Assembly (NCBI RefSeq): GCF_900110025.1
Contig: NZ_FOCE01000001.1
Coordinates: forward strand, 186,001 to 250,000
Origin: Gemmobacter aquatilis
Lineage (GTDB): Bacteria; Pseudomonadota; Alphaproteobacteria; Rhodobacterales; Rhodobacteraceae
Length of the DNA stretch: 64,000 nt
Direction of reading: 5' to 3'
Shown: piece after piece, positions 14,244 to 30,334 of the stretch
How the letters are laid out: each line of letters begins with the position of its first letter
How positions within the stretch are numbered: position 1 is the stretch's first letter
The notes under the pieces: model-generated
Seen by the model: only the letters and a program-made list of their open reading frames with translations
Database searches by the model: none
Told to the model about the DNA's origin: nothing
Translations under genes and position numbers: made by a program

Positions 14244-15269
14244 CTACTGAAGTGGCGCTGCCGTCGGTAGCGTCCAGGAGCCGTCAAGTACATTGGCCCG
14301 AGGCTGATACAGTCGGACGATATAGTTCCAACCCTCGGTGATCGGAATGCAGTTCGCCTGATCGTCGGATGAACAGCCACCGAATTGAACCGTGATTGAT
14401 CCATCAGCATCCTTGGTTCCTGTAACGCCGTTCACCGAGTTACGGTTCAAGGCGTTCGGTTCGAAGAATCCTGCTTTGTTGTAAACGCTGATCGACCAGA
14501 ACGCATCGACCGGGATGTCCTTCATGGTCAGGCGATGCACTGTTGTGGCGTCGTTGGTCGTGAGTGCTGGATTCAGATAGATCGCTTCGGACGGGGGGTT
14601 AAGCCCCCATCCAACGGCTGTTGCCACGAGGTGGGCGATTGGATCGACCTCACCCATCTTCCCCATCTGCACGCCGAACCCTTCTGACCCAAGCGCACCG
14701 AGATCAAGCAGCGCCTTTCGTGCCGCGTCGAGCGATGTCTTGTCCCATTCAGGCATCTCAAGCGAACCAGGCGAAGTCTGTTCCAGCTTAATGGCGTCCT
14801 GCACTGCATGAGCCTTGGTGATGTCCTCTGGGCTGGACGGATTTACGAACACGCGCACGAGCAGTGCGGCATATCGCGTGCCCACGCTTTCTTGCGTCAG
14901 CACGGCGGAGCCATCATGCAGTACCATGGGTGTCAGATGGTCCTGGTTGACAACCTGAAGTGCAACATAGCGGCCCTCATCTACCTCTGGCATGGTCACA
15001 GTGACCGGTCCAGCGGCCAAGTCGACCACCGCCGAGGAATACAACGTATCCCGGTTCATACGAATGATTGTCTGCTTGTCGAGCGGCACGACTTCGCGCT
15101 GGTGTACCAGAACGCCAAGCCCGCCATTCTGAGCGACGATGTTGCGCATGTAGTTGTCGCTCTCCGCGCGGATGAAAGTAACCGCGTTGACAGGTTTGGT
15201 TTCAGCGGCAGCAAACCCAAATGGAGAAGCCGTAAGAAACGCAAAAGCAAGAATAAAGGTCGCACGCAT
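14244..15269 (-). CDS. DUF1254/DUF1214 domain secreted protein
   Basis: The 341-residue protein has a Sec signal peptide (ATFILAFAFLTASPFGFAAAE) and a strong site, AGGAGAAACAT, before the ATG at 15269. DUF1254 occupies roughly residues 25-150, including INRDTLYS-like MNRDTLYSSAVVDL and a VVNQDH block. DUF1214 follows near the end, with FWSISVYNKAGFFEPNALNR and the terminal NYIVRLYQPRANVLDGSW block. The biochemical role of this periplasmic family is unknown. Base composition departs from its neighbours: in 14461-14580, 63 of 120 bases are G or C, against 43 of 60 in 13441-13500 in the adaptor gene, which suggests recent transfer. Two neighbouring imperfect repeats lie directly upstream. Confidence 0.85.
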   Translation of the reverse strand: MRATFILAFAFLTASPFGFAAAETKPVNAVTFIRAESDNYMRNIVAQNGGLGVLVHQREVVPLDKQTIIRMNRDTLYSSAVVDLAAGPVTVTMPEVDEGRYVALQVVNQDHLTPMVLHDGSAVLTQESVGTRYAALLVRVFVNPSSPEDITKAHAVQDAIKLEQTSPGSLEMPEWDKTSLDAARKALLDLGALGSEGFGVQMGKMGEVDPIAHLVATAVGWGLNPPSEAIYLNPALTTNDATTVHRLTMKDIPVDAFWSISVYNKAGFFEPNALNRNSVNGVTGTKDADGSITVQFGGCSSDDQANCIPITEGWNYIVRLYQPRANVLDGSWTLPTAAPLQ

Positions 15270-15589: not shown

Positions 15590-16495
15590 TCACTCCGGGA
15601 ACCTGCTGTCCAGGTCGCGTTCGATCTGGGCGGCGAATTTGGCGGCGGCGACGGGGAGGGTGCGGCCGCGCAACTGGCAGAGGTAGAGGCGGCCTTCGGG
15701 GATGTCGCGCGGGTCCACCGGGCGCGAGACGATGCCTTCGGGTTGCGGGGTGGCGGCAAGGCCGATGGGGATCTGGAAGCTGATCAGGTGCTCCTGCGCC
15801 GGGTAGTGGCGCAGAAACTCGAAATTGTCGGAATCGACGACGACGCGCAGCCGGACGGAGGAGCGCAGCAGCGCGTGGTCGATCAGGTGGCGCACGCCAT
15901 ATTGCACGGTGGGCAAGGCGATGGGGTATTGCTGACACTCGCGCAGGCGGATGACGCTTTGCGCCGCCAGCGGGTGATCGGCGGCCATGACGGCGTGGAT
16001 CGGCTGGCGCACGGCGGCGAGGATCTGCACCTCTGACATGCGCACGGGTTCGAAGATCAGCGCGATGTCGGCATCATGTTCCACCAGCGCGGCCTCGGCG
16101 GCGGCGCGGTCGCGCACGCGGACGGAAAAGGTGACGCCGGGGTGATCGCGGCGGTAACGGCCAATGTGATCGGGCAGGAAATAGGGCAGCAAGGCCTGCG
16201 AACAGGCGATGGTGACATTGCCGCGCCGTTCGCCCGCCAGATCGGCGATCTGGCTTTTCAGCTTTTCAAAATCGGCGGCCTGCGCGCGCAGATGCGAGAT
16301 CAGCAATTCGCCCGCCGTGGACAGCCGCACCCCGCGCGGCAGGCGTTCGAAGATCGGCACGCCCAGTTCATCCTCCAGCGCCAGCACGCGGCGGTTGAGC
16401 GCGGTGGAGGTGATGGCCAGCGATTCCGCGGCTTTGCGGATGGAACCCGCCCGGGCGATGGCGTCGATGAACAAGTGGGGGGTGAGCTGGTGCAT
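15590..16495 (-). CDS. LysR-family transcriptional regulator
   Basis: The 301-residue protein has the LysR winged helix-turn-helix at residues 1-60 (FIDAIARAGSIRKAAESLAITSTALNRRVLALEDELG) and a type 2 periplasmic-binding-like effector domain from about residue 90. It is transcribed away from the BMP transporter/biuret operon across a 167-bp gap. Divergent placement is the classic sign that a LysR protein controls the facing operon and itself. Two LysR-box-like inverted repeats lie in that gap. The effector may be biuret, triuret, allophanate or a related ureide; that is inference. The end of the protein (AAKFAAQIERDLDSRF) is typical of the family. Confidence 0.9.
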   Translation of the reverse strand: MHQLTPHLFIDAIARAGSIRKAAESLAITSTALNRRVLALEDELGVPIFERLPRGVRLSTAGELLISHLRAQAADFEKLKSQIADLAGERRGNVTIACSQALLPYFLPDHIGRYRRDHPGVTFSVRVRDRAAAEAALVEHDADIALIFEPVRMSEVQILAAVRQPIHAVMAADHPLAAQSVIRLRECQQYPIALPTVQYGVRHLIDHALLRSSVRLRVVVDSDNFEFLRHYPAQEHLISFQIPIGLAATPQPEGIVSRPVDPRDIPEGRLYLCQLRGRTLPVAAAKFAAQIERDLDSRFPE

Positions 16496-16511: not shown

Positions 16512-16546
16512 TGCAGAATTTGCAGCGGTTCGGTGCAAACTTAGCA
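16512..16546. promoter_or_regulatory. Pair of LysR-box-like inverted repeats
   Basis: TGCAGAATTTGCA (16512-16524) and TGCAAACTTAGCA (16534-16546) are similar 13-bp dyads. Their starts are 22 bp apart, close to two helical turns, so both face the same side of the DNA. They lie between the divergent lysR and transporter genes, as expected for tetramer binding. Confidence 0.55.
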
Positions 16547-16662: not shown

Positions 16663-17796
16663 ATGACGACTTTCCGTTCGCCTTTCTCGCGCCGTGGTTT
16701 CCTGCAAGGGGCGGCGGCGCTGACCGGCGCCACCGCGCTTGGCGGCCTGCCCTTCGGCGCCCGCGCGCAGGCGCTGACCGAGTTGACCGTGGGTTTCATC
16801 TATGTCGGCCCGCGTGACGATTTCGGCTATAATCAGGCCCATGCCGAAGGCGCCGCCGCCGTGAAGGCGATGGCGGGCGTGACGGTGGTGGAAGAAGAAA
16901 ATGTACCGGAAACCATGGATGTGCAGAAATCCATGGAATCGATGATCAATCTGGATGGGGCGGCGCTGATCTTCCCGACCTCGTTCGGCTATTTCGACCC
17001 CCATATCCTTGAACTGGCCGGGAAATACCCGGAGGTGCGGTTTGAACACTGCGGCGGGATGTGGACGAAGGACAAGCATCCGATGAATGTCGGCAGCTAT
17101 TTCGGCTATATCGGCATGGGGCAGTATCTGAACGGTGTGGCGGCGGGCCATGCCAGCAAGACCAAGAAGATCGGTTTCGTCGCCGCCAAGCCGATTCCGC
17201 AGGTGTTGCTGAACATCAACTCGTTCCTGCTGGGCGCGCGGTCGGTGGACCCGACGATCACCTGTCAGGTGATCTTCACCGGCGAATGGTCGCTGGCGGT
17301 GAAAGAGGCGGAAGCCACCAATGCGCTGTGCGATGCGGGTTGCGATGTGATCACCTGCCATGTGGACGGGCCGAAAGTGGTGATCGAAACCGCCGCCGGG
17401 CGCGGGTCTTTCGTGTGCGGCTATCACGCCAACCAGTCGGCGCTGGCGCCGGAGTTGTATCTGACCGGGGCCGAATGGAACTGGGCCGCCGTCTATACCA
17501 AGATGGTGGAAACCACGATGGCGGGCGGGGTGATCGACAATTTCGTGCGCGGCGGTCTGGCGGACGGGTTCATCAAGATGTCGCCGCTGGGGCCCGCCGT
17601 GCCCGAAGCCGGGCGCAAGCAATTCGAGGCGGTGCAGGCCGAGATCCTGAAAGGCGGCTTTGCCGCGATCAAGGGCCCGCTGAAGGACAATACCGGGGCC
17701 GAGATCGCCGCCGCCGGCCAGTCTTTCCTGGAAACCGACCCCGCGCTGGAGAGCATGAGCTATCTGGTTGAGGGTGTCATCGGCTCCACCTCGTAA
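16663..17796 (+). CDS. BMP/PnrA-type ABC transporter substrate-binding protein
   Basis: The 377-residue protein carries a twin-arginine signal (SRRGFLQGAAALTGATAL) and is therefore exported folded by Tat. The mature part matches the basic membrane protein/PnrA fold, with VGFIYVGPRDDFGYNQAHAEGA near the N-terminus and the family blocks VRFEHCGG, GSYFGYIGMGQYLNGVAAGHAS and KIGFVAAKPIPQVLLNIN. Family members bind nucleosides or other small nitrogen-rich ligands. It opens an operon with two BPD_transp_2 permeases, an ATPase, two isochorismatase-like hydrolases, a cupin and allophanate hydrolase. The likely cargo is therefore biuret, triuret or a related ureide (inference). GGAG lies 8-11 bases before the ATG. 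Confidence 0.88.
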   Translation: MTTFRSPFSRRGFLQGAAALTGATALGGLPFGARAQALTELTVGFIYVGPRDDFGYNQAHAEGAAAVKAMAGVTVVEEENVPETMDVQKSMESMINLDGAALIFPTSFGYFDPHILELAGKYPEVRFEHCGGMWTKDKHPMNVGSYFGYIGMGQYLNGVAAGHASKTKKIGFVAAKPIPQVLLNINSFLLGARSVDPTITCQVIFTGEWSLAVKEAEATNALCDAGCDVITCHVDGPKVVIETAAGRGSFVCGYHANQSALAPELYLTGAEWNWAAVYTKMVETTMAGGVIDNFVRGGLADGFIKMSPLGPAVPEAGRKQFEAVQAEILKGGFAAIKGPLKDNTGAEIAAAGQSFLETDPALESMSYLVEGVIGSTS

Positions 17797-17808
17797 GGGG
17801 TTGGGCGG

Positions 17809-18912
17809 ATGGCGGTGGCAGAGAGCCTGATGCAGGGGAGCGCGCGCAGCGAAGGGCTGCGCGACACCCTCGCCCGCCGCGCCGAGGCGGTGGTGATTCC
17901 GGCGCTGGCCCTGCTTGCGGGGCTGGTGGTGTTTGGACTGTTTCTGCTGACGCAGGGCAAATCGCCCTTCTCGTTCCTTTATTACGTCTGGCAGGGCGCC
18001 TATGGATCGGCGTTTTCGTGGCAGAATACGCTGTCGCGGGCGGCGCCCTTGCTGATGGCCGCCTTGTGCGTGGCGCTGCCGGCCCGGCTGGGGCTGGTGG
18101 TGATCGGCGGCGAAGGCGCGATCGTGCTGGGCGGCGTGGCGGCGGGGGCGCTGGCCGGGCCGCTGGCCGGGGTGACCCCGGTGATCGCGCTGCCGCTGCT
18201 GGCACTGGCCGCGATGATCGTGGGCGGGGCGTGGATCGGCGCCTCGGGCGCGCTGCGGTTCTATCGCGGGGTGAACGAGACGATTGCCAGCCTGCTGCTG
18301 TCTTACATCGCGATTGCGCTGATGAACCATCTGGTCGAAGGGCCGCTGCGCGACCCGGCCAGCCTGAACAAGCCGTCCACCGCGCCGCTGGTCGAGGGGC
18401 TGCGCGTCGGCAATCTGCCGGGGATGGAGGTGCATTGGGGGCTGCTGTTCGGGATCATCGGCTGCGTGGTGAGCTGGGTGCTGATCGAGCGGACGAGCTG
18501 GGGCTTTGGCGCCCGCATCGCCGGGGCCAATGTGAAGGCGGCGCAGGTGCAGGGGTTGCCGGTCGGGCGGCTGGTGATCGGCTTCACCGCGCTGGGCGGG
18601 GCGTTTGCCGGGCTGGCGGGGTTCTTCGAGGTGACGGCGATTCATGGCACGGCCAATGCCTCGCTGGCGGCGGGCTATGGTTATACCGGCATCCTGATCG
18701 CCTTTCTGGCGCGGCATAACCCGCTGGCGATTCTGCCGGTGGCGCTGTTGCTGGCGGGGTTCGATGCCTCGTCGGGGCTGGTGCAGCGGCGGATGGACCT
18801 GCCGGATGCGGCGGTGGTGGTGCTGCAGGGCTTTGTGTTCATGGCGATCCTGATTTCGGAAACGCTGTATGGCCGGTTCGACATCTTTCACCCGGAACGG
18901 AGGGCGCGCTGA
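17809..18912 (+). CDS. ABC transporter permease (BPD_transp_2 type)
   Basis: The 367-residue integral membrane protein has eight to ten hydrophobic segments and the branched-chain amino acid/ribose-type permease fold. Features include RLGLVVIGGEGAIVLGGVAAGALAG, then NETIASLLLSYIAIALMNHLVEGPL and the coupling region GANVKAAQVQGLPVGRLVIGF, which would contact the ATPase. It begins 12 bp after the binding-protein gene and its stop overlaps the next start by one base. It pairs with the following permease as the heterodimeric channel of the importer. Confidence 0.9.
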   Translation: MAVAESLMQGSARSEGLRDTLARRAEAVVIPALALLAGLVVFGLFLLTQGKSPFSFLYYVWQGAYGSAFSWQNTLSRAAPLLMAALCVALPARLGLVVIGGEGAIVLGGVAAGALAGPLAGVTPVIALPLLALAAMIVGGAWIGASGALRFYRGVNETIASLLLSYIAIALMNHLVEGPLRDPASLNKPSTAPLVEGLRVGNLPGMEVHWGLLFGIIGCVVSWVLIERTSWGFGARIAGANVKAAQVQGLPVGRLVIGFTALGGAFAGLAGFFEVTAIHGTANASLAAGYGYTGILIAFLARHNPLAILPVALLLAGFDASSGLVQRRMDLPDAAVVVLQGFVFMAILISETLYGRFDIFHPERRAR

Positions 18913-19835
18913 TGGCGGGCGATTTGGGTCTTTGGGGCATTCCGGTCGCCATTGTCGGCGGCGCGATCCGGGTTTCGACGCCGTTCCTGTTCGTCTCGCT
19001 GGGCGAGGTGCTGACGGAACGGTCTGGCCGGATCAATCTGGGGCTGGAAGGCACCTTGGTGTTTGGCGCCATGGCGGGCTATGGCACGGCGGTGTTGACG
19101 GGATCGGCCTGGGCCGGGGTGCTGGTGGCGGCGCTGGCGGGGGTGGTGTTCGGGCTGGTGCATGGCATCATCTGTTCGCTGCCCAAGGTGAATGACATCG
19201 CGGTGGGCATTGCGATGATGTTGCTGGGCTCTGGCCTCGCCTTCTATTTCGGCAAGCCGTTCATCCAGCCCACGGCGCCCGATCTGCCCGCGATTGCGCT
19301 GGGGGGGTGGTCTGACCTGCCGCAGGTGCAGGCGGCGTTGAATGTGAATGTGCTGTTCCTGATCGGGCTGGCGCTGGCGCTGGTGATGGCGTGGATGTTC
19401 CGCTCGACCAAGGTCGGGCTGACGCTGCGGGTGGTGGGCGACAGCACCGATGCCGCCCGCGCCATGGGCCTGCGCCCGGCAGTGATCCGCACGCTGGCCA
19501 CGGCGGCGGGCGGGGCGTTTGCCGGGGTCGGCGGGGCCTATCTGTCCCTGTATTACCCCGGAAGCTGGAATGAGGCGATTTCATCGGGGCAGGGCCTGAT
19601 GGCGGTGGCGCTGGTGATCTTTGCCCGCTGGAACCCGGTGGCCTGTTTCTGGGCGGCGCTGCTGTTCGGCGGTGCGGGCGCCCTGGGCCCGGCGTTGCAA
19701 TCGGTGGGCGTGACCAAGGGATATTACCTGTTCTATGCCGCGCCTTATGTGCTGACGCTGGGCGTTCTGATCGCCACCTCCTCGACCACCCGCGCGCTGA
19801 GCGGGGCGCCGGGCGAGCTTTCCATCACGAAATGA
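18912..19835 (+). CDS. ABC transporter permease (BPD_transp_2 type), second subunit
   Basis: The 307-residue membrane protein carries the paired-permease signature [28 protein letters not shown] near the N-terminus. It has further helices and the coupling loop [32 protein letters not shown]-like region around residues 175-205. Such permeases are the usual partner of the preceding type in BMP/PnrA-family importers. Start and stop overlap the upstream permease by one base (TGATG) and lie seven bases before the biuret hydrolase gene, so all are read as one transcript. Confidence 0.9.
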
Positions 19836-19842
19836 GGGCAAG

Positions 19843-20520
19843 ATGACCACGGTTTCCTCCACCCCCTATGCCTGGCCCTGGAATGGCGATCTGCGGCCCG
19901 AGAATACCGCGCTGATCATCATCGACATGCAGACCGATTTCTGCGGCACGGGCGGCTATGTGGACATGATGGGCTATGACCTGAGCATGACGCAGGCGCC
20001 GATCGAGCCGATCAAGGCGGTCTTGGCGGCGATGCGGGCGAAGGGATATACCATCATCCACACCCGCGAAGGGCACCGCCCGGACCTGAGCGACCTGCCG
20101 CCCAACAAGCGCTGGCGCAGCCGGCAGATCGGCGCGGGGATCGGCGATGCCGGGCCGTGCGGCAAGATCCTGATCCGGGGCGAGCCGGGTTGGGACATCA
20201 TCCCCGAGCTTTACCCGCTGCCGGGCGAGGCGATCATCGACAAGCCGGGCAAAGGCAGTTTCTGCGCCACCGATCTGGAGCTGATGCTGCGGGTGCAGGG
20301 GATCGAGAACATCATCCTGACCGGGATCACCACGGATGTCTGCGTCTCCACCACCATGCGCGAGGCAAATGACCGGGGCTTTGAATGCCTGATCCTGTCG
20401 GATTGCTGCGGTGCCACCGATCCGGGCAACCATGAGGCCGCGCTGAAGATGGTGACGATGCAGGGCGGCGTGTTCGGCGCGGTGTCGGACAGTGCCAGCC
20501 TGATCGCGGTGCTGCCATGA
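19843..20520 (+). CDS. biuH: Biuret hydrolase (isochorismatase-like cysteine hydrolase)
   Basis: The 225-residue enzyme fits biuret amidohydrolase, which converts biuret to allophanate and ammonia. The catalytic triad of the fold is visible as Asp28 ([12 protein letters not shown]), Lys134 ([16 protein letters not shown]) and Cys167 ([17 protein letters not shown]). All three keep the relative spacing I recall for the characterised Rhizobium enzyme (Asp36/Lys142/Cys175, a uniform offset of eight). Other family-specific blocks are [13 protein letters not shown] and [25 protein letters not shown]. The gene lies inside the ABC transporter operon, between permease and ATPase genes, and upstream of an allophanate hydrolase that would use its product. 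Assignment is strong but rests on recalled similarity. Confidence 0.87.
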
Positions 20521-22052
20521 GCATCATCGGGGAAGAGCCGCTGCCCCCCGGCGCGCTGGAGGTGGAGACGCTGGGCATGACCATGCGGTTCGGCGCCTTT
20601 ACCGCGCTGGACGATGTGTCGATCCGCGTGGCGCCGGGCAGTTTTCATGCGCTGCTGGGCGAGAATGGCGCGGGCAAATCGACGCTGGTGAAGTGCATCA
20701 TGGGCTTTTACCACGCCACCAGTGGCGAGTTGCTGGTGGGCGGGCGCGAGGCGAGGATCGCCGATCCGCGCCATGCCCATGCGATGGGGCTGGGCATGGT
20801 GTATCAGCATTTCACGCTGGTGCCCTCGCTGACCGTGGCCGAGAATCTGGTGATCTCGCGCAAGGATGCGCCGGCGGTGATCGACTGGGGGAAAGAGCGC
20901 GCGGGGCTGGATGCCTTCATGCAATCCATGCCGTTCCGGGTGCCGCTGGATCAGACGGTGGCGCGGCTGGCGGCGGGGGAAAAGCAGAAGCTGGAGATTT
21001 TGAAGCAGCTTTACCTGGGCCGCAGGTTTCTGATTCTGGATGAACCGACAAGCGTGCTGACGCCGGACGAGGCCGACGAGGTGCTGGGCCATGTGCGGGC
21101 GCTATGCGAGGCGGGCGAGATTTCGGTGCTGATGATCACCCACAAGTTCCGCGAGGTGACGGCCTTTGCCGACGAAGTTTCGGTGCTGCGCCGGGGCAAG
21201 CTGGTCGGGCAGGGCAAGGTGGCCGATCTGACCCATGCGCAGATGGCGGCGATGATGATCGGCGCCGAAAAGGACACGACGCCCGCGCCCCGCAGCGGCA
21301 CGACCGGGGCGCCGGTGCTGGAGATTGACGGCATCCGCGCGCTGGACCGTTCGGGGTTGAAGGAAATCGACATCCGCAGCCTGACCGTGCGCGCGGGCGA
21401 GATCGTCGGCATCGCCGGGATTTCCGGCAATGGCCAGATGGAGCTGATGGAGGTGCTGACCGGCCAGCGCCCGCTGATGGCGGGGGCGATCAAGGTGGAG
21501 GGCGCGCCCTACAGCGCGACGCGGGCCGAAGCGCAGAGGTTGGCGGTGCGCTATCTGCCGGAGGAGCCGTTGCGCAATGCCTGTGCCGGGCGGATGAGCG
21601 TGATCGAGAACATCGCTTTCCGCAGCTTTGACCGCAAGGGCGACAGCCCGCGCTTCTGGACCTCGGGCAAGGAGATGAGGGCACGGGGGACGGAGCTGAT
21701 TGCCGCCTTCAAGGTGAAGGTGGCGGCGCCGGACGGGCCGATTGCGGCGCTGTCGGGTGGCAATGTGCAGCGCGCGGTGCTGGCGCGGGAACTGACGGGG
21801 GCGGTGCGGTTGCTGGTGATTTCAAACCCCTGTTTCGGGCTGGATTTCTCGGCTGTGGCGGAGATTCGGGCGCGGATCATGGCGGCGCGCAATGCGGGCA
21901 CGGCGGTGTTGTTGATGAGCGAGGATCTGGACGAGGTGATGGAACTTTCAGACCGCATCGTCGTGATGTCGGAGGGCCGGATCAGTTACGAGGTGACGGC
22001 GGCACAGGCCTCTCTGGCCGAGATCGGGCATCATATGGGAGGGCACGCGTGA
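20517..22052 (+). CDS. ABC transporter ATP-binding protein with two nucleotide-binding domains
   Basis: The 511-residue protein holds two tandem ABC domains, as is usual for sugar/nucleoside-type importers. Domain 1 has Walker [10 protein letters not shown] (about residues 45-53), a Q-loop [15 protein letters not shown], signature [11 protein letters not shown] and Walker [12 protein letters not shown]. Domain 2 (from about 265) has a degenerate Walker [10 protein letters not shown], without the Lys, a signature [15 protein letters not shown] and a Walker B reading [12 protein letters not shown]. That asymmetry is normal for the second domain of this group. It overlaps biuH by four bases and the second hydrolase by one. 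The hydrolase genes flanking it suggest that the importer and hydrolases share a substrate. Confidence 0.92.
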
Positions 22053-22720
22053 TGGCAGAGCTTGCGGGCGCCCTGCCCTTTCCGTTGCGGTTCGACCCCG
22101 CCAGCACGGCGCTGATCGTGATCGACATGCAGCGCGATTTCGTCGAGCCGGGCGGGTTTGGCGCGGCGCTGGGCAATGATGTGACGCTGTTGCAGGCGAT
22201 CATTCCCACGGTGGCGGCGCTGATTGCCGGGGCGCGGGCGGCAGGGGTTCCGGTGATCCATACCCGCGAATGCCACCTGCCCGACCTGAGCGACTGCCCC
22301 CCCGCCAAGCGGCTGCGCGGGGCACCTGCGCTGCGGATCGGCGATCCGGGGCCGATGGGGCGGATTCTGATTGCGGGCGAACCGGGGGCCGAGATCGTGC
22401 CGGAACTGGCGGCGCTGCCGGGCGAGGTGGTGATCGACAAGCCGGGCAAGGGCGCGTTCTACGCCACGCCGCTGAGCGAGATTCTGGCGGGGCTGGGGAC
22501 GAAGACCCTGATCTTCGCCGGGGTGACGACCGAGGTTTGCGTGCAGACCACGATGCGCGAAGCGAATGACCGGGGCTTTGACTGCCTGTTGGCCGAAGAT
22601 GCCACCGAAAGCTATTTCCCCGCCTTCAAGGCCGCCGCGCTGGAGATGATCCGCGCGCAGGGCGCGATTGTCGGATGGACAGCCCGCACCGCCGAGATCG
22701 TGGAGGCGCTGCATGGCTGA
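22052..22720 (+). CDS. trtA: Isochorismatase-like hydrolase, candidate triuret hydrolase
   Basis: This 222-residue paralogue of BiuH keeps the triad as Asp25 (VIDMQRDF), Lys130 ([12 protein letters not shown]) and Cys163 ([17 protein letters not shown]). It differs in the regions around them: [14 protein letters not shown] replaces [14 protein letters not shown], and Tyr replaces Cys after GKGAF. Triuret hydrolase (TrtA) is known to be a close BiuH relative encoded beside biuH, which makes TrtA the best guess; it would yield 1-carboxybiuret, which loses CO2 to give biuret. The alternative is a hydrolase for another ureide or carbamate. The ATG overlaps the upstream stop by one base, after GGGAGGG. 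The family is certain; the substrate is an inference. Confidence 0.62.
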
Positions 22721-23060
22721 CCCTTTCCACCTGCCGGGCCTGCTGCAAGGTTGGTGGCGGACTGCCAATTACCAACCCTTCCGCGAGGGGGTCGATATTT
22801 GCCCGCTCAACGAAGGGAACCCCGGCGTGGCGCTTCTGCGCTATGCCCCCCAAGCAGGGGTGCCACGCCATCTTCACACCGGGCTTGAGATGATCCTTGT
22901 GCTGGAAGGCACGCAAAGCGACGAACGGGGCGATTACCCGGCAGGATCCCTGGTGCTGAACCCGGAAGGCACCGCCCATTCCGTTTGGTCGGACGAGGGC
23001 TGTGTCGTATTGATTCAGTGGGAACGCCCGGTGGCGTTTCTGCCGGACGCGCAAGACTGA
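22713..23060 (+). CDS. Small cupin-domain protein
   Basis: The 115-residue single-cupin protein overlaps the end of the upstream hydrolase gene by eight bases and ends 12 bp before atzF, so it belongs to the catabolic operon. Metal-binding cupin motif 1 is visible as [15 protein letters not shown] (two His and a Glu, residues about 51-64). Motif 2 is degenerate: [22 protein letters not shown] keeps one His. This pattern resembles ChrR-type cupins. Its job in ureide metabolism is unknown; a metal-dependent decarboxylase or hydrolase for a labile intermediate such as carboxybiuret, or a regulatory sensor, are possibilities only. Confidence 0.8.
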
Positions 23061-23072
23061 GAAAGTAACAAG

Positions 23073-24878
23073 ATGACCCTGCCTGCTGCTGCCGATCTTT
23101 CCTTCGACATTGCTTCGCTTCATGCGGCCTATGCGGCGGGGCTTTCGCCCGCCGCCGTGCTGGCCGAAAGTTTTGCCCGCCACAAAGCGGCGGATGATCC
23201 GGCGATGTTCCTGTATCTGCGCGATCTGGACGAGGCGCAGGTCGAGGCGGCGGCGCTGCCCGCGTTTGACGCGGCGGCCTATCCGCTGTGGGGGGTCCCC
23301 TTCGCGGTGAAGGACAATATCGACGTGGCCGGGGCGCCGACCACCGCCGCCTGTCCGGCCTTTGCCTATCTGGCGGACGAGGATGCCTTTGTGGTGGCGA
23401 TGCTGCGCAAGGCCGGGGCGATCTGGATCGGCAAGACCAATCTGGATCAGTTCGCCACCGGCCTGGTGGGCGTGCGGTCGCCCTATGGCGTGCCGCGCAA
23501 TGCGATTGATCCGCTGATCGTGCCGGGCGGATCGTCCAGTGGATCGGGCGTTGCGGTGGCGCGCGGGATCGTCAGCTTTTCGCTGGGCACCGATACCGCC
23601 GGGTCTGGCCGGGTGCCGGCGGCGCTGAACAATATCGTCGGGCTGAAGCCGACGCTGGGCGCGCTGTCGGCCAGCGGCATGGTGCCGGCCTGCCGGACGC
23701 TGGACACGATTTCAATCTTCGCGCTGACGGTGGCGGATGCGCATCGCGCCTTCCGCGTGGCCTGCGCCTATGACGCGGCAGATGCCTATGCCCGCCCGAT
23801 TGCGGCCCCGCCGCTGGCCCCGGTGCCGCCCACCTTGCGGATCGGCGTGCCGGATGCCGCGACGCGCGAGTTTTTCGGCGATGCCGCGCAGGCCGAGGCT
23901 TTTGCGGCGGCGCTGGACCAACTGCGCGGGTTTGGCTGCGAGATCCGCGAGATCGACTTTACGCCGCTCTATCAGGTGGCGCAGATGCTGTATGAGGGCG
24001 CCTGGGTGGCCGAACGCATGGCGGCGATTGAACCGCTGTTCCGGTCCAACCCCGAGGCGATCCATCCGACCACGGCGAAGATCATCGGCGGGGCCGACAA
24101 GCTTTCGGCGGCGGATGCGTTTCGCGGCTTCTACCGGCTGGCCGATCTGAAACGCGCGGCAGAACCGATGCTGGCGGGGCTGGACCTGCTGTGCGTGCCG
24201 ACGATCCCGACCTTCTACAGTCTGGCCGATCTGGAGGCTGACCCGATCGGGCCGAACAGCCGCTTTGGCACCTATACGAATTTCGTGAACCTGATGGATA
24301 TGTGCGGGATTGCGGTGCCGACCGGGCCGCGGTCTGACGGGCGGCCGGGCAGCGTGACGCTGCTGGCACGCGCCGGGCAGGATGGGCTGGCCGCGGCGCT
24401 GGCACAGCAGATTCAGCAGGCCGCACATCCGGTGTTGGGGGCGACGGGCAAGCCGCTGCCTGTGGCAGCGGCACCTGTGGGCGCTTTGGCGCCGGGCGAA
24501 GCGGCGCTGGTGCTGGTGGGCGCGCATATGTCGGGGCTGCCGCTGAACGGCGATGTCACGTCACGCGGCGGGCGGTTTCTGGCGGCGACCACGACAGCGC
24601 CGGACTATCGGCTGTTTGCGCTGGCGGGCGGGCCGCCGTTCCGGCCCGGATTGCTGCGGGTCAGCACCGGTGGCGCGGCACTGGCGGTGGAGGTCTGGGC
24701 GATGCCCATCGCGCGGCTGGGAGAGTTTTTGCTGACAATCCCGGCGCCCTTGGGGCTGGGCACGGTGCGGCTGGCCGATGGCAGCACGGCAACCGGGTTT
24801 CTGGTGGAAAGCGCAGGCGTTGACGGCGCCGAAGACATCACTGCCCTGGGAGGCTGGCGCGCCTATCTGGCGCGCTGA
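23073..24878 (+). CDS. atzF: Allophanate hydrolase, amidase plus C-terminal domain
   Basis: The 601-residue enzyme matches AtzF in length and layout. The N-terminal amidase-signature domain has Lys80 (GVPFAVKDNIDVAG), Ser154 (PGGSSSGSGVAVA) and Ser178 (GTDTAGSGRVPAA). Their spacing of 74 and 24 residues equals that recalled for Pseudomonas AtzF (Lys91/Ser165/Ser189). From about residue 465 a separate C-terminal domain follows (GEAALVLVGAHMSGLPLN, FRPGLLRV, MPIARLGEFLLTIPAPLGLGTV), characteristic of allophanate hydrolases. AtzF-type amidase domains deaminate allophanate to N-carboxycarbamate, which decays to ammonia and CO2; the C-terminal domain may finish the reaction in some homologues. It is the last gene of the operon and completes the biuret route. 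Confidence 0.93.
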   Translation: MTLPAAADLSFDIASLHAAYAAGLSPAAVLAESFARHKAADDPAMFLYLRDLDEAQVEAAALPAFDAAAYPLWGVPFAVKDNIDVAGAPTTAACPAFAYLADEDAFVVAMLRKAGAIWIGKTNLDQFATGLVGVRSPYGVPRNAIDPLIVPGGSSSGSGVAVARGIVSFSLGTDTAGSGRVPAALNNIVGLKPTLGALSASGMVPACRTLDTISIFALTVADAHRAFRVACAYDAADAYARPIAAPPLAPVPPTLRIGVPDAATREFFGDAAQAEAFAAALDQLRGFGCEIREIDFTPLYQVAQMLYEGAWVAERMAAIEPLFRSNPEAIHPTTAKIIGGADKLSAADAFRGFYRLADLKRAAEPMLAGLDLLCVPTIPTFYSLADLEADPIGPNSRFGTYTNFVNLMDMCGIAVPTGPRSDGRPGSVTLLARAGQDGLAAALAQQIQQAAHPVLGATGKPLPVAAAPVGALAPGEAALVLVGAHMSGLPLNGDVTSRGGRFLAATTTAPDYRLFALAGGPPFRPGLLRVSTGGAALAVEVWAMPIARLGEFLLTIPAPLGLGTVRLADGSTATGFLVESAGVDGAEDITALGGWRAYLAR

Positions 24879-24976: not shown

Positions 24977-26431
24977 ATGCTGGCGCAATTTGATGCCAAA
25001 GATGCCACCGATCTTGCGGCGCTGGTGGCGCGGGGCGCTGTCAGCGCCGGGGAATTGCTGGACGCCAGCCTTGCGGCGGTGGCGCGCTGGAACCCCAAGC
25101 TGAACGCGGTGGTTCTGGTGCAGGACGCGGTGGCGCGGGCGGCGATTGCGGCGGGGCTGCCGCGCGGGCCGTTTCGCGGCGTGCCGTTCCTGTTGAAGGA
25201 TCTGGGCTGCGAGGCGGTGGCGTTTCCGTCGCATAACGGCTCTCGCCTGCTGGCGAACACGCGTTACGGCAAGGATTCAGCGATTTATCAGCGGATCCGG
25301 GCAACCGGCGTGGTGACCTATGGGCGCACCACCAGCCCCGAAGGCGGGATTGGCGCCGCGACCGAGGCCGCGGTCTATGGCGGGCCGACGCGCAACCCGT
25401 GGCACCTGGACCATACCTCGGGCGGGTCATCTGGCGGTGCGGGGGCCGCGGTGGCGGCGGGGATCGTGCCCTTTGCGCATGGATCGGATGGCGGCGGGTC
25501 GGTGCGGATTCCGGCCTCAAGCTGCGGGTTGTTCGGGTTCAAGCCGACGCGGGCGCGGCTGCCGGATGGGCCTTATGCCGGCGAAGGCTGGGCCGGGATG
25601 GCGATTGACGGGTTTCTGACGCGCAGCGTGCGGGATACGGCGGCGATGCTGGATGCCTGCGAAGGGGCCGACCTCGGGGCGCCCTACTGGGCACCACCTT
25701 TGGCGCGCGGCCATATGCAGGCGATCAGCCGCCCGCCGCGCCGCTTGCGGGTGATGGTCTGCGAGACCAGTTTTACCGGCGATCCGATCCACCCCGATTG
25801 CCGCAAGGCCGTGCTGGATACCGCGCGGCTGCTGGAATCGCTGGGGCATCAGGTGGTGCCCGGCCTGCCCCGCGCCGATGTGAAGGCGATGATGCGCGCC
25901 TGGACTGATGTGGTGGCCTGCGGCACGGCTTTGGGGGTGCGCAAGGCGCTGGCCGCCAAGGGGCGCGGGCTGGAACCGGGCGATGTGGAGGGCGTGACGC
26001 GCGGCGCGATGGCCCATGCCGCCACGATTTCCGGCGCGGATTATCTGGCGGCGGTGGGGGCGATCCATGCCTTTGGCCGCGAGATGGCGGCGGTGTTCGA
26101 CCCCGAAAAGGGCGCGGGCTGCGACATCATCCTGTCGGCCACGCTGGCCGAGCCCCCGGCGGAGGTGGGCCGGTTTTCCCATGATACCGAAGATTATGTG
26201 GCCTATCGCACCGGGCCGGGCGGGATTTTCGACTATTCGCCCTTCTGCGCGGTGTTCAACGCCTCGGGCCAACCGGCGGCTTCGGTGCCGCTCGGCTGGT
26301 CGGCCAGCGGGTTGCCGATCGGCGTGCATCTGGCGGCGCGCTTTGGCAGCGATGAAGAATTAATCGCTTTGTGCGCGGAACTTGAGCAATCGCAACCCTG
26401 GATTGCGTATTTCGGAAAAATTGCGCTGTGA
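24977..26431 (+). CDS. Amidase-signature hydrolase, similar to 6-aminohexanoate cyclic dimer hydrolase
   Basis: The 484-residue amidase has Lys74 ([10 protein letters not shown]), Ser151 ([12 protein letters not shown]) and Ser175 ([13 protein letters not shown]), the Ser-cisSer-Lys triad. Blocks such as [16 protein letters not shown] and the early Asn-Gly-Ser-Arg region resemble NylA-type cyclic amide hydrolases more than AtzE or GatA. AGGGG lies before the ATG at 24977. It is set apart from atzF by a terminator and has its own upstream motif. The substrate is an amide or ureide of unknown identity. A role as 1-carboxybiuret hydrolase is less likely, because the small AtzG subunit is absent. 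Confidence 0.85.
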
Positions 26432-26439
26432 CGCAGGTT

Positions 26440-26462
26440 TTGATTGCACGCATATGAATCAA
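26440..26462. promoter_or_regulatory. Inverted repeat TTGATT-N11-AATCAA
   Basis: A perfect 6-bp dyad with an 11-bp spacer lies in the 69-bp gap before the second ABC operon, just upstream of the shared 15-bp motif. Dyads of this type often bind dimeric regulators. No direct evidence of function. Confidence 0.4.
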
Positions 26463-26468
26463 CCGCAG

Positions 26469-26483
26469 AATATGATCAAAAGT
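26469..26483 (+). promoter_or_regulatory. Copy 2 of the shared 15-bp motif, AATATGATCAAAAGT
   Basis: It is identical to 24924-24938 and lies 17 bases before the TTG start of the ABC ATPase gene, overlapping the region just ahead of the ribosome binding site. Confidence 0.6.
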
Positions 26484-26486
26484 ATT

Positions 26487-26503
26487 GGAGGCGAGTCACC
26501 TTG
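26487..26503 (+). promoter_or_regulatory. Ribosome binding site that sets a TTG start
   Basis: GGAGGCG at 26487-26493 is seven bases before the TTG at 26501. The in-frame ATG at 26444 lies inside the upstream dyad and lacks a ribosome binding site, so the TTG is preferred. Confidence 0.7.
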
Positions 26504-27556
26504 AGCCAGACCAACGCAATCGAAGCCCGCCACACGATCAAGGCCTTCGGCCAGGGAGACAGCGCGCATCGTGCGTTGGATGACGTGTCGATCACCATCC
26601 GCAAGGGCGAGTTCTTCACGCTGCTGGGCCCCTCGGGCTGTGGCAAGACCACGCTGTTGCGGCTGATCGCCGGGTTCGAGATGCCAACGGCGGGCGATAT
26701 TCTGATCGACGGGGCCGAGGTGACGGACCTGCCGCCGAACAAGCGCCCGGTAAACACGGTGTTCCAAAGCTATGCGCTGTTCCCGCATCTGACCGTGGCC
26801 GAGAATGTGGGGTTCGCGCTGAAAATGCTGGGGCGGCCCAAGGCGGAAGTGGCCGAGGTGACGGCGCGGATGCTGGCGCTGGTGAAGCTGGAACATCTGG
26901 CGGGGCGCAAGACGGCGCAGCTTTCGGGCGGGCAGCAACAGCGGGTGGCGCTGGCCCGCGCGCTGGCGCCGCATCCGAAGGTGCTGCTGCTGGACGAACC
27001 GCTGAGCGCGCTGGACCTGAAGCTGCGCAAGGAAATGCAGGTGGAGCTGAAGCGGTTGCAGATGGAAACCGGCATCACCTTCGTCTTCGTGACCCATGAT
27101 CAGGAGGAGGCGCTGACGATGAGCGACCGGATCGGGGTGATGAGCGCGGGCAAGCTGCAACAGGTGGGCAGCCCGCGCGAGATCTATACCCGCCCGGTGA
27201 ACCGCTTTGTCGCCAGCTTCATCGGCGAGACGAATTTCCTGCCCGCCAAACCGGTTGCAGGCGGGGTGAAGCTGGGCTGTGGCGCGGTGGTGGAGGCCGA
27301 GGGCGAGGGCCATACGCTGACCGTGCGGCCCGAACAGTTGCGGCTGGTGGCGGCGAACGAGCCGGGGGCGATTGCGGCGACGGTGGAAAACCTCGTCTAT
27401 TTCGGCACCGATACCCATCTGAACCTGCGGCTGAGCGATGGCGAGGCGCTGGTGGCGCGGGTGCAAAGCCCGCCGACCGGCGATGCCGGTTTTGCCATGG
27501 GGCAGGCCGTGGGCGTGACCTTCCTGCCCGGCGCCGCGCGCCTGATCCGGGATTGA
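26501..27556 (+). CDS. Spermidine/putrescine-type ABC transporter ATP-binding protein
   Basis: The 351-residue ATPase has Walker [10 protein letters not shown] (residues 43-51), a Q-loop [17 protein letters not shown], signature [15 protein letters not shown] and Walker [15 protein letters not shown]-terminal TOBE domain from about residue 270 includes [11 protein letters not shown] and is typical of PotA/FbpC-type importers. It starts the operon for a complete importer (ATPase, two permeases, binding protein). Ligands of this family include polyamines, but the neighbouring amidase suggests an amine or amide compound instead (inference). Confidence 0.93.
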
Positions 27557-27561
27557 GCGCC

Positions 27562-28473
27562 ATGAGCCGTGCTGAAGACCGGCAGGCCCGCGCCTCCACC
27601 CGCAACGGCTGGCTTCTGTCAGTTCCGGCGCTGCTGTTGCTGCTGTTTGCGGCCAGCGGGCCGCTGGTGATCGTGATCGTCTATTCCTTCCTGACGCCGG
27701 GCCAGTATGGCAATGTCGTCTGGGGGTTCAGCCCCGATGGCTGGATCGGCGTGCTGTTCACCCGCGATATTTTCGACGACACGCTGGGGCTGGCGGATGC
27801 ACATCTGACGATCTTCTGGCGGTCGGTGAAACTGTCGCTGGAAACCACCGTGCTGACCTTTCTGGCGGGCTTTCCCACGGCCTGGTTCATCGCCACCCGC
27901 CCGCCGAAAGCGCGGGCGCTGTGGCTGTTTCTGATCACCATTCCGTTCTGGACCAACCTGCTGATCCGCACCTTCGCCATCAACGAGGTGCTGCGCAGCG
28001 AAGGGTTGATGAACACGGTGCTGATGAAGCTTGGGCTGATCAGCGCGCCGATTCAGGTGATGTATACCGATACGGCGGTGCTGATCGGCATGGCCTATGT
28101 CTATCTGCCGCTGATGGTGCTGCCGCTGTTCGCCGCGATTGACCGGTTCGACATGAAGCTGCTGGAGGCGGGGTATGATCTGTATGCCAGCCGCTGGCAG
28201 GTGCTGCGCCATGTGATCCTGCCCATCGTGAAGCCGGGGATCGTGGCGGGGTCGATCCTCGTCTTCGTGCCCTCGCTGGGCGCCTATGTCACGCCGCGCG
28301 TGCTGGGCGGGGGCAAGAACATGATGATCGGCAATTTCATCGAATTGCAGTTCACCCAGGGGCGCAACTGGCCACTGGGGGCGGCGCTGTCGCTGCTGCT
28401 GCTGATCGTGGTGATGGTGGCGCTGCTGGTCTATGTGCGCGCCGCCAACAAGGGGAGCAACCCGCATGGCTAA
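27562..28473 (+). CDS. ABC transporter permease (PotB type)
   Basis: The permease of 303 residues begins at the ATG at 27562; a TTG nine bases upstream overlapping the ATPase stop is possible. It has six hydrophobic helices and the EAA loop that docks on the ATPase, AGYDLYASRWQVLRHVILPIVKPGIVAGSIL, at about residues 205-235. The first helix (ALLLLLFAASGPLVIVIVYSFL) and the long periplasmic loop after it match PotB-like subunits. It overlaps the next gene by eight bases. Confidence 0.92.
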   Translation: MSRAEDRQARASTRNGWLLSVPALLLLLFAASGPLVIVIVYSFLTPGQYGNVVWGFSPDGWIGVLFTRDIFDDTLGLADAHLTIFWRSVKLSLETTVLTFLAGFPTAWFIATRPPKARALWLFLITIPFWTNLLIRTFAINEVLRSEGLMNTVLMKLGLISAPIQVMYTDTAVLIGMAYVYLPLMVLPLFAAIDRFDMKLLEAGYDLYASRWQVLRHVILPIVKPGIVAGSILVFVPSLGAYVTPRVLGGGKNMMIGNFIELQFTQGRNWPLGAALSLLLLIVVMVALLVYVRAANKGSNPHG

Positions 28474-29266
28474 GCGTTTTGACATCGCCCGCCTGCCGGG
28501 CTTTGCCCCCATCGCGCTGCTGTCCTTCGTGGCGCTGTATCTGCCGATCTTCACGCTGGTCGGCTATTCGTTCAACGCGGGCAATTCCGTCGCGGTATGG
28601 AGCGGGTTTTCGCTGCACTGGTATTCGGCGGCCTGGGCCAACGAGACGGTGAAGGCGGCGACGCTGCGGTCGCTGAGCATTGCCACGCTGGCCTCGGCCA
28701 TTGCCACGGTGATTGCCACCATGGCGGCCATCGGCACCACGCGCCGGCGGGCCTTCAAGGGGCAGACGCTGATCTATGTGGCGATCAACCAGCCGCTGAT
28801 GGTGCCGGAAATCGTGACCGCCGTGGCGCTGATGATCTTTTTCGGGATGCTGAAACAGGTGACCGGCTATCAGGGGCTGGGCTATCTGATTCTGGCGCAC
28901 GCGGCCTTCTGCATCCCCTTCGCCTATCTGCCGATCCGCGCCCGGCTGGAGGGGATGGACCTGAGCCTTGAGACCGCCGCCGCGGATCTTTACGCCTCGC
29001 CCTGGCAGACCTTTCGCCATGTCACGCTGCCCTTGCTGGGGCCGGGGATCGCAGCAGGGGCGATGCTGGCCTTCGTCATCAGTCTGGATGACGTGGTGAT
29101 CACCGAATTCGTGAAATCCGGCGGGCAGGACACCCTGCCCACCTACATGCTTGGCCAGATGCGCCGGGCGATCACGCCCGAGGTCAATGCGATTTCGACC
29201 CTGCTGCTGGGCCTGACCGTGGCCCTGCTGACCGCCTTCTTCCTGCTGACCAGAAAACGGGGCTGA
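28466..29266 (+). CDS. ABC transporter permease (PotC type)
   Basis: The 266-residue permease has six helices and the PotC-type pattern YSFNAGNSVAVWSGFSLHWY after helix 1. Its EAA loop is AAADLYASPWQTFRHVTLPLLGPGIAAG near residues 175-200, and SLDDVVITEF, a well-conserved PotC block, follows. Start is the ATG at 28466, eight bases inside the end of the upstream permease gene, so the two are probably translated together. It pairs with the PotB-like subunit. Confidence 0.93.
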   Translation: MAKRFDIARLPGFAPIALLSFVALYLPIFTLVGYSFNAGNSVAVWSGFSLHWYSAAWANETVKAATLRSLSIATLASAIATVIATMAAIGTTRRRAFKGQTLIYVAINQPLMVPEIVTAVALMIFFGMLKQVTGYQGLGYLILAHAAFCIPFAYLPIRARLEGMDLSLETAAADLYASPWQTFRHVTLPLLGPGIAAGAMLAFVISLDDVVITEFVKSGGQDTLPTYMLGQMRRAITPEVNAISTLLLGLTVALLTAFFLLTRKRG

Positions 29267-29305
29267 CCAACAGCCCGACGCCACATCCACCAACAGAGGA
29301 CTACA

Positions 29306-30334
29306 ATGAAAAAGTTGTTTACTGCCACGGCCCTTTTGCTTGCCTCCACCGGCCTTGCCAGCGCCGAGGGCGTTCTGAACCTGTATAACTGGGGCAATTA
29401 CACCAGCCCCGAGTTGCTGGCGAAGTTCGAGAAAGAAACCGGGATCAAGGTCACCGTCACCGATTACGACAGCAACGATGTGGCGCTGGCCAAGGTTGAG
29501 GCGGGCGGGCATGGGTTCGATCTGGTGGTGCCTTCGGCCAATTATGTGCCGATCTGGATCGAGAAGGGCCTGATTACCGAGCTGGATCTGGCGAAACTGC
29601 CGAACCACGGCAATATCGCGCCGGAATGGCAGGATGTTGCGTGGGATGCGGGCCGCAAGTTCACCATTCCGTGGCAGTGGGGGTCGACCGGGGTTGCGGT
29701 GAACACCAAGGTTTATGGCGGCGACATCAACACCGCCGAAATCTTCCTGAACGTGCCCGCCGAATTGAAGGGCAAGATCAACGTCGTGCCGGAGATGAAC
29801 GACATCGTTTCGATGGCGACAATGTGGGCGGGTGGCGAGCCGTGCAGCGAAGATACCGCTGTGCTGAAGAAGGCCCGCGATGCGCTGCTGGCCGCCAAGC
29901 CGGACTGGGTTGCGATGGATTACGGCGCCACCGAGAAACTGTCGAACGGTGATTGGGCGGCCTCGGTCAACTGGAACGGCTCGACCATGCGGGCGCGCGT
30001 CGCCACCAATGGGGATGTGCAGTATGGCTATCCGAAGGAAGGCTATCCGCTGTTCATGGATTCGGTCGCGCTGCTGAAGGATGCGCAGAATGTCGAAGAG
30101 GCCTACAAGTTCCTCGACTTCGTGATGCTGCCGGAAAATGCCGCGATGATTTCGGCCTTTGCGCGCTATGCCAATGGTATCGCCGGGTCTGAGGCGTTCA
30201 TGCCCGAAGACATGAAGACCGCGCCTGAAGTGGTGATCCCGGAACAGTTCAAGGCGGCGGGCGTGTTCCTGCCGACCTGCACCGGCAAATCGCTGGAATA
30301 TATCACCGCGATCTGGACTGAACTGCAGAAATGA
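29306..30334 (+). CDS. Spermidine/putrescine-type ABC transporter substrate-binding protein
   Basis: The 342-residue protein has a cleaved signal peptide (KLFTATALLLASTGLASAE) and the PotD/PotF opening VLNLYNWGNYTSPELLAKFEKETGIKV, followed by TDYDSNDVALAKVEAGGHGFDLVVPSANYV. Further blocks include IPWQWGSTGVAVNT and NGDWAASVNWNGSTMRAR. It contains two widely spaced Cys (CSED and PTCTGKS) that might form a disulfide in the periplasm. AGAGGA precedes the ATG. The ligand pocket should favour a cationic amine, but exact specificity cannot be read from the sequence. Confidence 0.93.
   Translation: MKKLFTATALLLASTGLASAEGVLNLYNWGNYTSPELLAKFEKETGIKVTVTDYDSNDVALAKVEAGGHGFDLVVPSANYVPIWIEKGLITELDLAKLPNHGNIAPEWQDVAWDAGRKFTIPWQWGSTGVAVNTKVYGGDINTAEIFLNVPAELKGKINVVPEMNDIVSMATMWAGGEPCSEDTAVLKKARDALLAAKPDWVAMDYGATEKLSNGDWAASVNWNGSTMRARVATNGDVQYGYPKEGYPLFMDSVALLKDAQNVEEAYKFLDFVMLPENAAMISAFARYANGIAGSEAFMPEDMKTAPEVVIPEQFKAAGVFLPTCTGKSLEYITAIWTELQK

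What the first reader, a model, noticed from the sequence alone, without database searches (positions are those of the whole stretch)
16663..24878. Complete predicted triuret/biuret uptake and mineralisation operon
Eight genes with gaps of 12 bases or less, most overlapping, combine a BMP/PnrA-type ABC importer with BiuH-like and TrtA-like hydrolases, a cupin and an AtzF-like allophanate hydrolase. Seen directly: gene order, overlaps, catalytic residues Asp28/Lys134/Cys167 and Lys80/Ser154/Ser178. Known: BiuH makes allophanate, AtzF destroys it, and TrtA is encoded beside biuH in some genomes. Inferred: the importer carries triuret, biuret or a related ureide. The hydrolase genes sit between the transporter subunit genes, which suggests a shared substrate. 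Linking a dedicated PnrA-type importer to triuret has not, to my knowledge, been shown.
Basis: partly seen in the sequence, partly recalled or inferred. Interest (0 to 1): 0.78.

Follow-up and report, generated by a model that had tools for sequence, protein, structure and literature searches.

The report
Triuret and biuret scavenging operon
A row of eight genes probably lets this bacterium pull in triuret and biuret, two small nitrogen-rich waste compounds, and turn them into ammonia; the layout is widespread and largely known, but one small gene in it may be an unrecognised enzyme for the middle step.

Summary
In detail: eight co-directional genes (16663-24878, junctions -8 to 12) encode a BMP/PnrA-type ABC importer, BiuH, TrtA, a cupin and AtzF. 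BiuH passes NCBIfam's BiuH cut-off and is 81% identical to crystallised Rhizobium BiuH. TrtA is 65% identical to crystallised Herbaspirillum TrtA and matches it at 13 of 13 compared residues, six of which separate it from BiuH; the tree agrees. The layout is not unusual: 69 of 80 fetched trtA loci have the BMP gene, including R. johnstonii 3841 pRL10. A 2025 paper already reports bmpA-nupABC beside trtA/biuH/atzF in nitrifiers, so the novelty claim falls; transport itself is unshown. New here: (1) this BMP type is tied to BiuH (21 of 23 sampled places; the other two lie at contig ends) and has its own conserved pocket; (2) the cupin follows trtA in 54 of 81 loci, never with an AtzH-like (probably TrtB) gene in the same locus, suggesting an alternative carboxybiuret decarboxylase; (3) two regulatory types, sigma-54-like or LysR. 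New member of a known kind, with one testable gap-filling hypothesis.

The parts
15590..16495 (-). divergent LysR-type regulator
   Evidence: PF03466/PF00126 over cut-off; a LysR of at least 50% identity lies within 2.5 kb of the BMP gene in 22 of 77 other loci with usable upstream sequence
16512..16524 (+). TGCA-N5-TGCA box, candidate LysR site
   Evidence: present in 19 of 23 LysR-type upstream regions (window included) and 3 of 55 others; 0.34 expected in 78 shuffled regions
16663..17796 (+). BMP/PnrA-type solute-binding protein with probable Tat signal
   Evidence: PF02608 129.9 bits vs 24.1; TAT_signal 22.4 vs 22.7 (just under) and TIGR01409 19.9 vs 16.7; best single-sequence PDB hit AtzT 6pi5; one side of a 100/100 branch with the other BiuH-linked BMPs
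17809..18912 (+). ABC permease 1
   Evidence: PF02653 86.9 bits vs 26.8
18912..19835 (+). ABC permease 2
   Evidence: PF02653 113.8 bits vs 26.8
19843..20520 (+). biuH, biuret hydrolase
   Evidence: NF050097 421.4 bits vs cut-off 370; 81.4% identical to 6azo over 221; 13 of 13 compared residues as in 6azo
20517..22052 (+). double ABC ATPase
   Evidence: PF00005, two stretches
22049..22720 (+). trtA, triuret hydrolase
   Evidence: 65.4% identical to TrtA 6xix over 211; 13 of 13 compared residues as in 6xix; 29-row clade with 6xix, 100/100
22713..23060 (+). single-domain cupin (ChrR-type fold); candidate carboxybiuret decarboxylase
   Evidence: PF12973 67.5 bits vs 27; H53, H55, E59, H89 invariant in 57 of 57; never in one locus with an AtzH-like gene
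23073..24878 (+). atzF, allophanate hydrolase
   Evidence: TIGR02713 773.2 bits vs 511 and AH_C domain 159.1 vs 27

Best explanation
A nitrogen-scavenging operon. The binding protein captures a planar ureide (biuret and/or triuret) in the periplasm and hands it to the two permeases and the ATPase. In the cytoplasm TrtA cuts triuret to carboxybiuret plus ammonia, carboxybiuret loses CO2 (spontaneously or, I propose, with help of the cupin), BiuH cuts biuret to allophanate plus ammonia, and AtzF breaks allophanate into two ammonia and CO2. The divergent LysR probably controls transcription. Shown elsewhere for homologues: TrtA, BiuH and AtzF chemistry. Inferred here: enzyme identities (near certain), importer substrate (likely), cupin role (open), regulation (likely).
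For: Enzyme families, residues and tree. BMP linked to BiuH: of 106 BMP places listed in 289 class genomes, 21 of 23 with 55% identity or more lie within 4.2 kb (start to start) of a BiuH-like gene and the other two lie at contig ends; 0 of 83 more distant BMPs lie within 20 kb of a BiuH-like gene. Linked BMPs share one pocket, YSFQQNWHD at AtzT positions 45, 97, 98, 139, 165, 169, 194, 218, 220, in 70 of 77 rows; 18 of 24 other BMP rows have W/Y-SFREGWHD and AtzT has YSFTENWNN. The aromatic sandwich for a flat ligand is kept, and the purine-contacting Glu165 is Gln, which fits a neutral ureide. Loci without an adjacent LysR carry a sigma-54-type promoter match upstream of the BMP gene (46 of 55 at 10 or more of 12; 0 of 22 LysR loci), as expected of nitrogen-limitation genes.
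Against: No ligand data. The nearest solved binding proteins bind purines (AtzT binds guanine at about 110 nM; PMC6834077, parts 1-3 of 5 read). In 3 of 21 linked places the operon has BiuH but no TrtA nearby, and the 12 TrtA-like places of 55-61% identity are never next to this BMP type (11 of the 12 were fetched, and one, G208, lacks the TrtA residues), so triuret may not be the main cargo. The link is tighter from BMP to BiuH than back: of 24 BiuH-like places of 47-53%, 21 have the BMP, one (G288) is at a contig end and two (G246, G057) do without it. Of 93 loci 11 hold an AtzD (in 8 of them between biuH and the ATPase gene) and 38 a formamidase-like gene, so the cargo may be broader, for example cyanurate.
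Confidence: 0.8

Rival explanations
1. The importer is a purine or nucleobase transporter that merely travels with the hydrolases; biuret and triuret enter by other routes.
For: Nearest PDB relatives are purine binders (PMC6834077). The 2025 nitrifier paper names the homologous transporter a nucleoside transporter. Two pocket residues (His218, Asp220) are shared with most other BMPs.
Against: Separate branch, 100/100, away from AtzT and the other BMPs (54 rows; long branches warned of); different, conserved residues at 139, 165 and 169; interleaved gene order and tight BiuH linkage. No purine-degrading domain in the operon.
Confidence: 0.15
2. The true cargo is cyanuric acid or another ring precursor, with TrtA and BiuH working downstream.
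For: AtzD in 11 of 93 loci, in 8 between biuH and the ATPase gene, including R. johnstonii pRL10 (PF09663); the pocket keeps an aromatic sandwich.
Against: No AtzD found in this genome (but none of its control genomes rang, so absence is not firm); 82 of 93 loci show none, though some are cut short; the pocket reads the same in the 9 AtzD loci with a BMP row.
Confidence: 0.15
3. For the cupin: it is a small-molecule sensor or an accessory protein, not an enzyme, and carboxybiuret decays on its own.
For: Its closest solved relatives are ChrR anti-sigma factors; carboxybiuret decarboxylates with a half-life of about 20 min in vitro (PMC7948467).
Against: It covers only the C-terminal part of the ChrR models and scores far below them (43.3 vs 124.5 and 33.7 vs 300). 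A full metal site is invariant. It never shares a locus with an AtzH-like gene.
Confidence: 0.5

Closest known systems
Triuret pathway of Herbaspirillum sp. BH-1 and R. leguminosarum 3841 (TrtA, BiuH, AtzF; PMC7948467, parts 1-4 of 6 read)
   Different: L158 has an AtzH-like gene where the window has the cupin; pRL10 has the cupin but also a formamidase-like gene and AtzD, and shows no AtzF match of 44% identity or more in its 20.7 kb locus
trtA/biuH/atzF/bmpA-nupABC clusters of ammonia-oxidising bacteria and comammox, and biuH/bmpA-nupABC of archaea (PMC12625717, passages)
   Same: Same enzymes (atzF not collocated in the archaeal biuH loci) and same transporter family, co-located
   Different: 'Cupin' occurs nowhere in its main text; trtB reported in AOB, lacking in comammox; transporter called nucleoside transporter
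pADP-1 atzDGEHF with the atzRSTUVW transporter (AtzT; PMC6834077 parts 1-3 of 5, PMC6219798 passages)
   Same: BMP-type importer plus a regulator, AtzR, serving a ureide/s-triazine nitrogen pathway ending in AtzF
   Different: AtzT lies outside the BiuH-linked BMP branch; AtzD, AtzEG and AtzH are used in place of TrtA and BiuH

Membership tests
BiuH biuret hydrolase | NCBIfam equivalog NF050097 score over cut-off | tested here: met
   421.4 vs 370
BiuH biuret hydrolase | BiuH-type active-site and second-shell residues | tested here: met
   13 of 13 as in 6azo (residues from PMC7948467)
BiuH biuret hydrolase | hydrolyses biuret to allophanate | not testable with these tools
   needs enzyme assay
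TrtA triuret hydrolase | TrtA-type residues | tested here: met
   13 of 13 as in 6xix, six of them (F35, N41, A134, E160, Y187, I205 in TrtA numbering) different in BiuH 6azo
TrtA triuret hydrolase | groups with the characterised enzyme, apart from BiuH | tested here: met
   29-row clade with 6xix 100/100; 39 TrtA rows against 33 BiuH rows one change, 100/97 (76 of 181 rows used, 4 of them in neither group)
TrtA triuret hydrolase | strict triuret specificity | not testable with these tools
   needs enzyme assay
AtzF allophanate hydrolase | TIGR02713 over cut-off, AH_C domain, Lys-Ser-Ser triad | tested here: met
   773.2 vs 511; PF21986 159.1 vs 27; K80, S154, S178
BMP/PnrA-type ABC importer | Bmp binding protein, two BPD_transp_2 permeases, double ATPase | tested here: met
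NCBIfam putative B6 ABC transporter | equivalog cut-offs | tested here: not met
   61.6 vs 400, 172 vs 400, 133 vs 465, 399.2 vs 670
AtzT purine/triazine-binding protein | purine-contact residues Glu165, Asn218, Asn220 and AtzT branch | tested here: not met
   Gln, His, Asp; separate branch
TrtB carboxybiuret decarboxylase (taken here as AtzH-like, an inference) | PF11533 domain | tested here: not met
   the cupin hits PF12973 over and PF07883 just under cut-off, nothing else at E 0.001; no PF11533 match in the genome
ChrR anti-sigma factor | ChrR family model | tested here: not met
   TIGR02451 43.3 vs 124.5

The most novel reading that the evidence does not exclude
The cupin is an unrecognised, non-homologous carboxybiuret decarboxylase that does TrtB's job in alphaproteobacterial triuret operons, and the BiuH-linked BMP branch is a dedicated ureide (biuret/triuret) importer family with its own pocket code.
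Probability: 0.35. Interest if true: 0.55.

Novelty: new member of a known kind. Interest (0 to 1): 0.4.

Why it matters
Triuret alone reaches fields with urea fertiliser at about 300 million pounds a year (PMC7948467 abstract). No experimental bacterial importer of biuret or triuret turned up in the listings (open-licence papers only). A pocket code tied to BiuH would let transporters now labelled sugar or nucleoside importers be renamed. A cupin that handles carboxybiuret would fill a step that the 2025 nitrifier paper leaves to 'an unidentified enzyme' or spontaneous decay in comammox, which lacks trtB; whether comammox has this cupin was not looked at.

Tried and rejected
Vitamin-B6-type transporter (NCBIfam names): all four subunits far below cut-off. 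AtzT orthologue: rejected by tree and pocket. Sigma-54 promoter in the window: the 9-of-12 match overlaps the TGCA-N5-TGCA box and no LysR-type locus scores 10 or more, so I read it as the LysR site (the upstream region of L020 falls inside its split BMP match, and L025's BMP match is split too). Downstream amidase (24977-26431) as a pathway member: 98-base gap, below the cut-offs of all models listed, 41% or less in other loci; left out. A cupin locus with NTF2-fold neighbours (Sulfitobacter, L167) looked like a counter-example; neither neighbour matches PF11533. Genome-level cupin/AtzH contrast: 1 of 14 genomes with the operon cupin has a PF11533 match against 17 of 18 without it (for L006 and L035 the cupin is taken; weak ChrR-like cupin hits elsewhere were not counted). 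This is weaker than it looks: most of those AtzH-like genes are not next to trtA, related genomes are not independent, and I chose the 32. The exception is G080; its cupin and that of G265 are listed with one stop inside the aligned stretch, not followed up. Locus-level contrast: 8 of the loci (L158-L165) were picked by me from trtA hits.

I infer that it is AtzH-like from L158, where such a gene follows a trtA 92% identical to the BH-1 enzyme, and from L069/L165, whose gene set with urease nearby matches the AOB contig described in PMC12625717. The paper that defined TrtB (AEM 2020) was not seen; recalled only.

Full report
What is there. Eight genes on the + strand, 16663-24878, with junctions of 12, -1, 7, -4, -4, -8 and 12 bases, encode a BMP-type binding protein, two BPD_transp_2 permeases, an isochorismatase-fold hydrolase, a double ATPase, a second isochorismatase-fold hydrolase, a small cupin and a two-domain amidase. 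A LysR gene is divergent at 15590-16495. A further amidase at 24977 follows after 98 bases and is followed by another ABC transporter set.

The enzymes. The first hydrolase scores 421.4 against the BiuH model (cut-off 370) and the second 251.1. Against crystallised enzymes the first is 81.4% identical to Rhizobium BiuH (6azo) and the second 65.4% identical to Herbaspirillum TrtA (6xix). At 13 positions taken from the TrtA paper (PMC7948467; parts 1-4 of 6 and passages read) the first reads exactly as 6azo and the second exactly as 6xix; six of the 13 differ between the two references. In a maximum-likelihood tree of 76 of 181 rows, TrtA and BiuH rows separate at 100/97; the window's BiuH is in the group of 6azo, and its TrtA in a 29-row clade (100/100) with 6xix. 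AtzF passes its equivalog model at 773 against 511 and keeps Lys80, Ser154, Ser178. This is as firm as sequence can make it; activities remain untested.

How common. Of the 11 without a BMP match, nine begin within or just before the operon at a contig end and two (L063, L079) have neither BMP nor ATPase gene although there is room. R. johnstonii 3841 pRL10 (L082), home of the characterised BiuH, has the same order with a carbon-nitrogen hydrolase and an AtzD added. A genome with TrtA 92% identical to the BH-1 enzyme also has it. The importer link is therefore a standing feature of the known triuret/biuret pathway. It is in print for nitrifiers (PMC12625717, passages). No paper on biuret or triuret import by bacteria was seen in the listings; that library holds open-licence papers only.

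What the importer follows. In 289 genomes drawn evenly from the class, the 106 listed BMP places split into 23 at 55% identity or more and 83 at 42% or less. Twenty-one of the 23 lie within 4.2 kb of a BiuH-like gene; the other two, in G288 and G078, lie on contigs that end about 3.4 kb and 0.14 kb downstream. None of the 83 lies within 20 kb of a BiuH-like gene of 42% or more; two, noticed by eye, lie beside an isochorismatase-fold gene of 34%, and one is 8.6 kb from a TrtA-like gene of 61%. In the other direction, 21 of 24 BiuH-like places of 47-53% have the BMP gene; G288 is cut, and G246 and G057 do without it. In three places (G169, G266, G124) the BMP gene is with biuH alone while a TrtA of 55-60% sits elsewhere. 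Twelve such TrtA-like places occur; 10 of the 11 fetched have TrtA-type residues (9 exactly, one with Ser for Ala134) and G208 does not. Five amidases were then scored, four beside unlinked trtA genes (L089, L091, L099, L102) and one from the BMP-linked locus L055; all five pass the AtzE models. AtzH-like genes were seen near the unlinked trtA of L089, L091, L099 and L107 (output partly cut). So the importer tracks BiuH more closely than TrtA, which favours biuret, or both, over triuret alone.

The pocket. Aligned to AtzT, whose guanine contacts are described in PMC6834077 (parts 1-3 of 5 read), 70 of 77 linked BMP rows read YSFQQNWHD at the nine positions; 4 of the other 7 are fragments and 3 are full-length variants (L055, L069, L083). 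Of 24 unlinked BMP rows 18 read W/Y-SFREGWHD and 6 differ. In a tree of 54 rows the linked proteins are one side of a branch at 100/100 and AtzT is among the others (the tool warned of long branches). Tyr and Trp that sandwich a flat ligand are kept; Glu165, which bonds guanine, is Gln. That fits a flat, neutral ureide, but this is inference.

The cupin. In 54 a cupin match begins -4 to 189 bases after the trtA match on the same strand, and none of these loci shows an AtzH-like gene or an amidase that scores best as AtzE. Of the 27 others, 18 hold an AtzH-like gene, 7 of them (L054, L058, L068, L069, L158, L159, L162) directly after trtA in the cupin's place; 9 hold neither, and L007, L021, L073 and L074 of these have 6 kb or less downstream. 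Fisher p is about 1e-11, inflated by kinship, since cupin loci are mostly alphaproteobacterial and AtzH loci mostly betaproteobacterial by record title. AtzH is an NTF2-fold protein proposed to decarboxylate dicarboxyurea (PMC6219798, passages). TrtB decarboxylates carboxybiuret (PMC7948467); I infer that it is AtzH-like. The cupin keeps His53, His55, Glu59 and His89 in 57 of 57 sequences. The simplest reading is that the cupin replaces TrtB. Cupins that act on ureides are known (ureidoglycolate and ureidoglycine enzymes; recalled). Against it: its closest solved relatives are regulators, and carboxybiuret decays by itself.

Regulation. Of 55 BMP upstream regions without an adjacent LysR, 46 hold a -24/-12 match of at least 10 of 12; of 22 with LysR none does. 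Over the 79 upstream regions (window and both L069 and L165 included) shuffles gave 0.9 at 10 or more, and the reverse strand gave 1. LysR-type loci instead share a TGCA-N5-TGCA box (19 of 23 including the window, against 3 of 55). The same pathway thus seems wired either to nitrogen limitation through sigma-54 or to a dedicated LysR.

Own genome. Four BMP proteins, one of them in this operon; no AtzH-like protein (one control genome rang); no AtzD (no control rang, so not firm). In the phylum sample, 2 of the 22 same-family genomes that the answer lists, the window's own and G583, had a TrtA-like match at E 1e-55 or better (340 genomes without a match are not listed), which suggests patchy distribution.

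Verdict. The importer reading is likely but untested. The system is a new member of a known kind; the fresh points are the pocket code, the cupin/AtzH exchange and the two modes of control.

Noticed in passing
L166 9901-10218 (R. etli CIAT 652 pC, ACE94166.1): The 105-aa cupin of this operon is annotated 'putative allophanate hydrolase'; it is a Cupin_7 protein. Such labels could lead readers to count an AtzF that is not there: no AtzF match of 44% or more lies in the 20.7 kb pRL10 locus L082, although PMC7948467 says the 3841 operon contains AtzF (its figure S1 was not seen).
   Followed up: partly
L100 7014-12863 and L101 3150-8981: A sister operon: a BMP protein of about 41% identity to the window's with pocket YSYMQSWQD, a distant isochorismatase-fold hydrolase, a YjgF-like protein (L101) and its own ABC subunits. 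Possibly another importer-hydrolase pair for a related compound.
   Followed up: partly
L098 9518-11125, L104 7917-9452: Proteins of 511-535 aa next to unlinked trtA copies, in one sequence cluster, with no Pfam match; membrane-like by eye, so a possible alternative carrier.
   Followed up: no
L104 7148-14347: A trtA copy followed, after that protein, by AllH, a CoA-ligase-like protein, AllG and an amino-acid-kinase-family gene, as in the oxalurate branch; this mirrors the allFGHK link reported for comammox in PMC12625717.
   Followed up: no
L005, L008, L009, L020, L082 and others, between permease 2 and biuH: A carbon-nitrogen hydrolase gene (338 aa in these five; annotated formamidase in Sulfitobacter) is present in 38 of 93 loci, in 37 of them between permease 2 and biuH, while L095 is cut; the window lacks it there.
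   Followed up: partly
window 24977-32045: The next group: an amidase, an ABC ATPase, two BPD_transp_1 permeases, a solute-binding protein and an Amidohydro_3 enzyme, so a second uptake-and-hydrolysis set right behind the operon (the ATPase was read by eye).
   Followed up: partly
window 14244-15269 (-): DUF1254/DUF1214 protein beyond the LysR gene.
   Followed up: no
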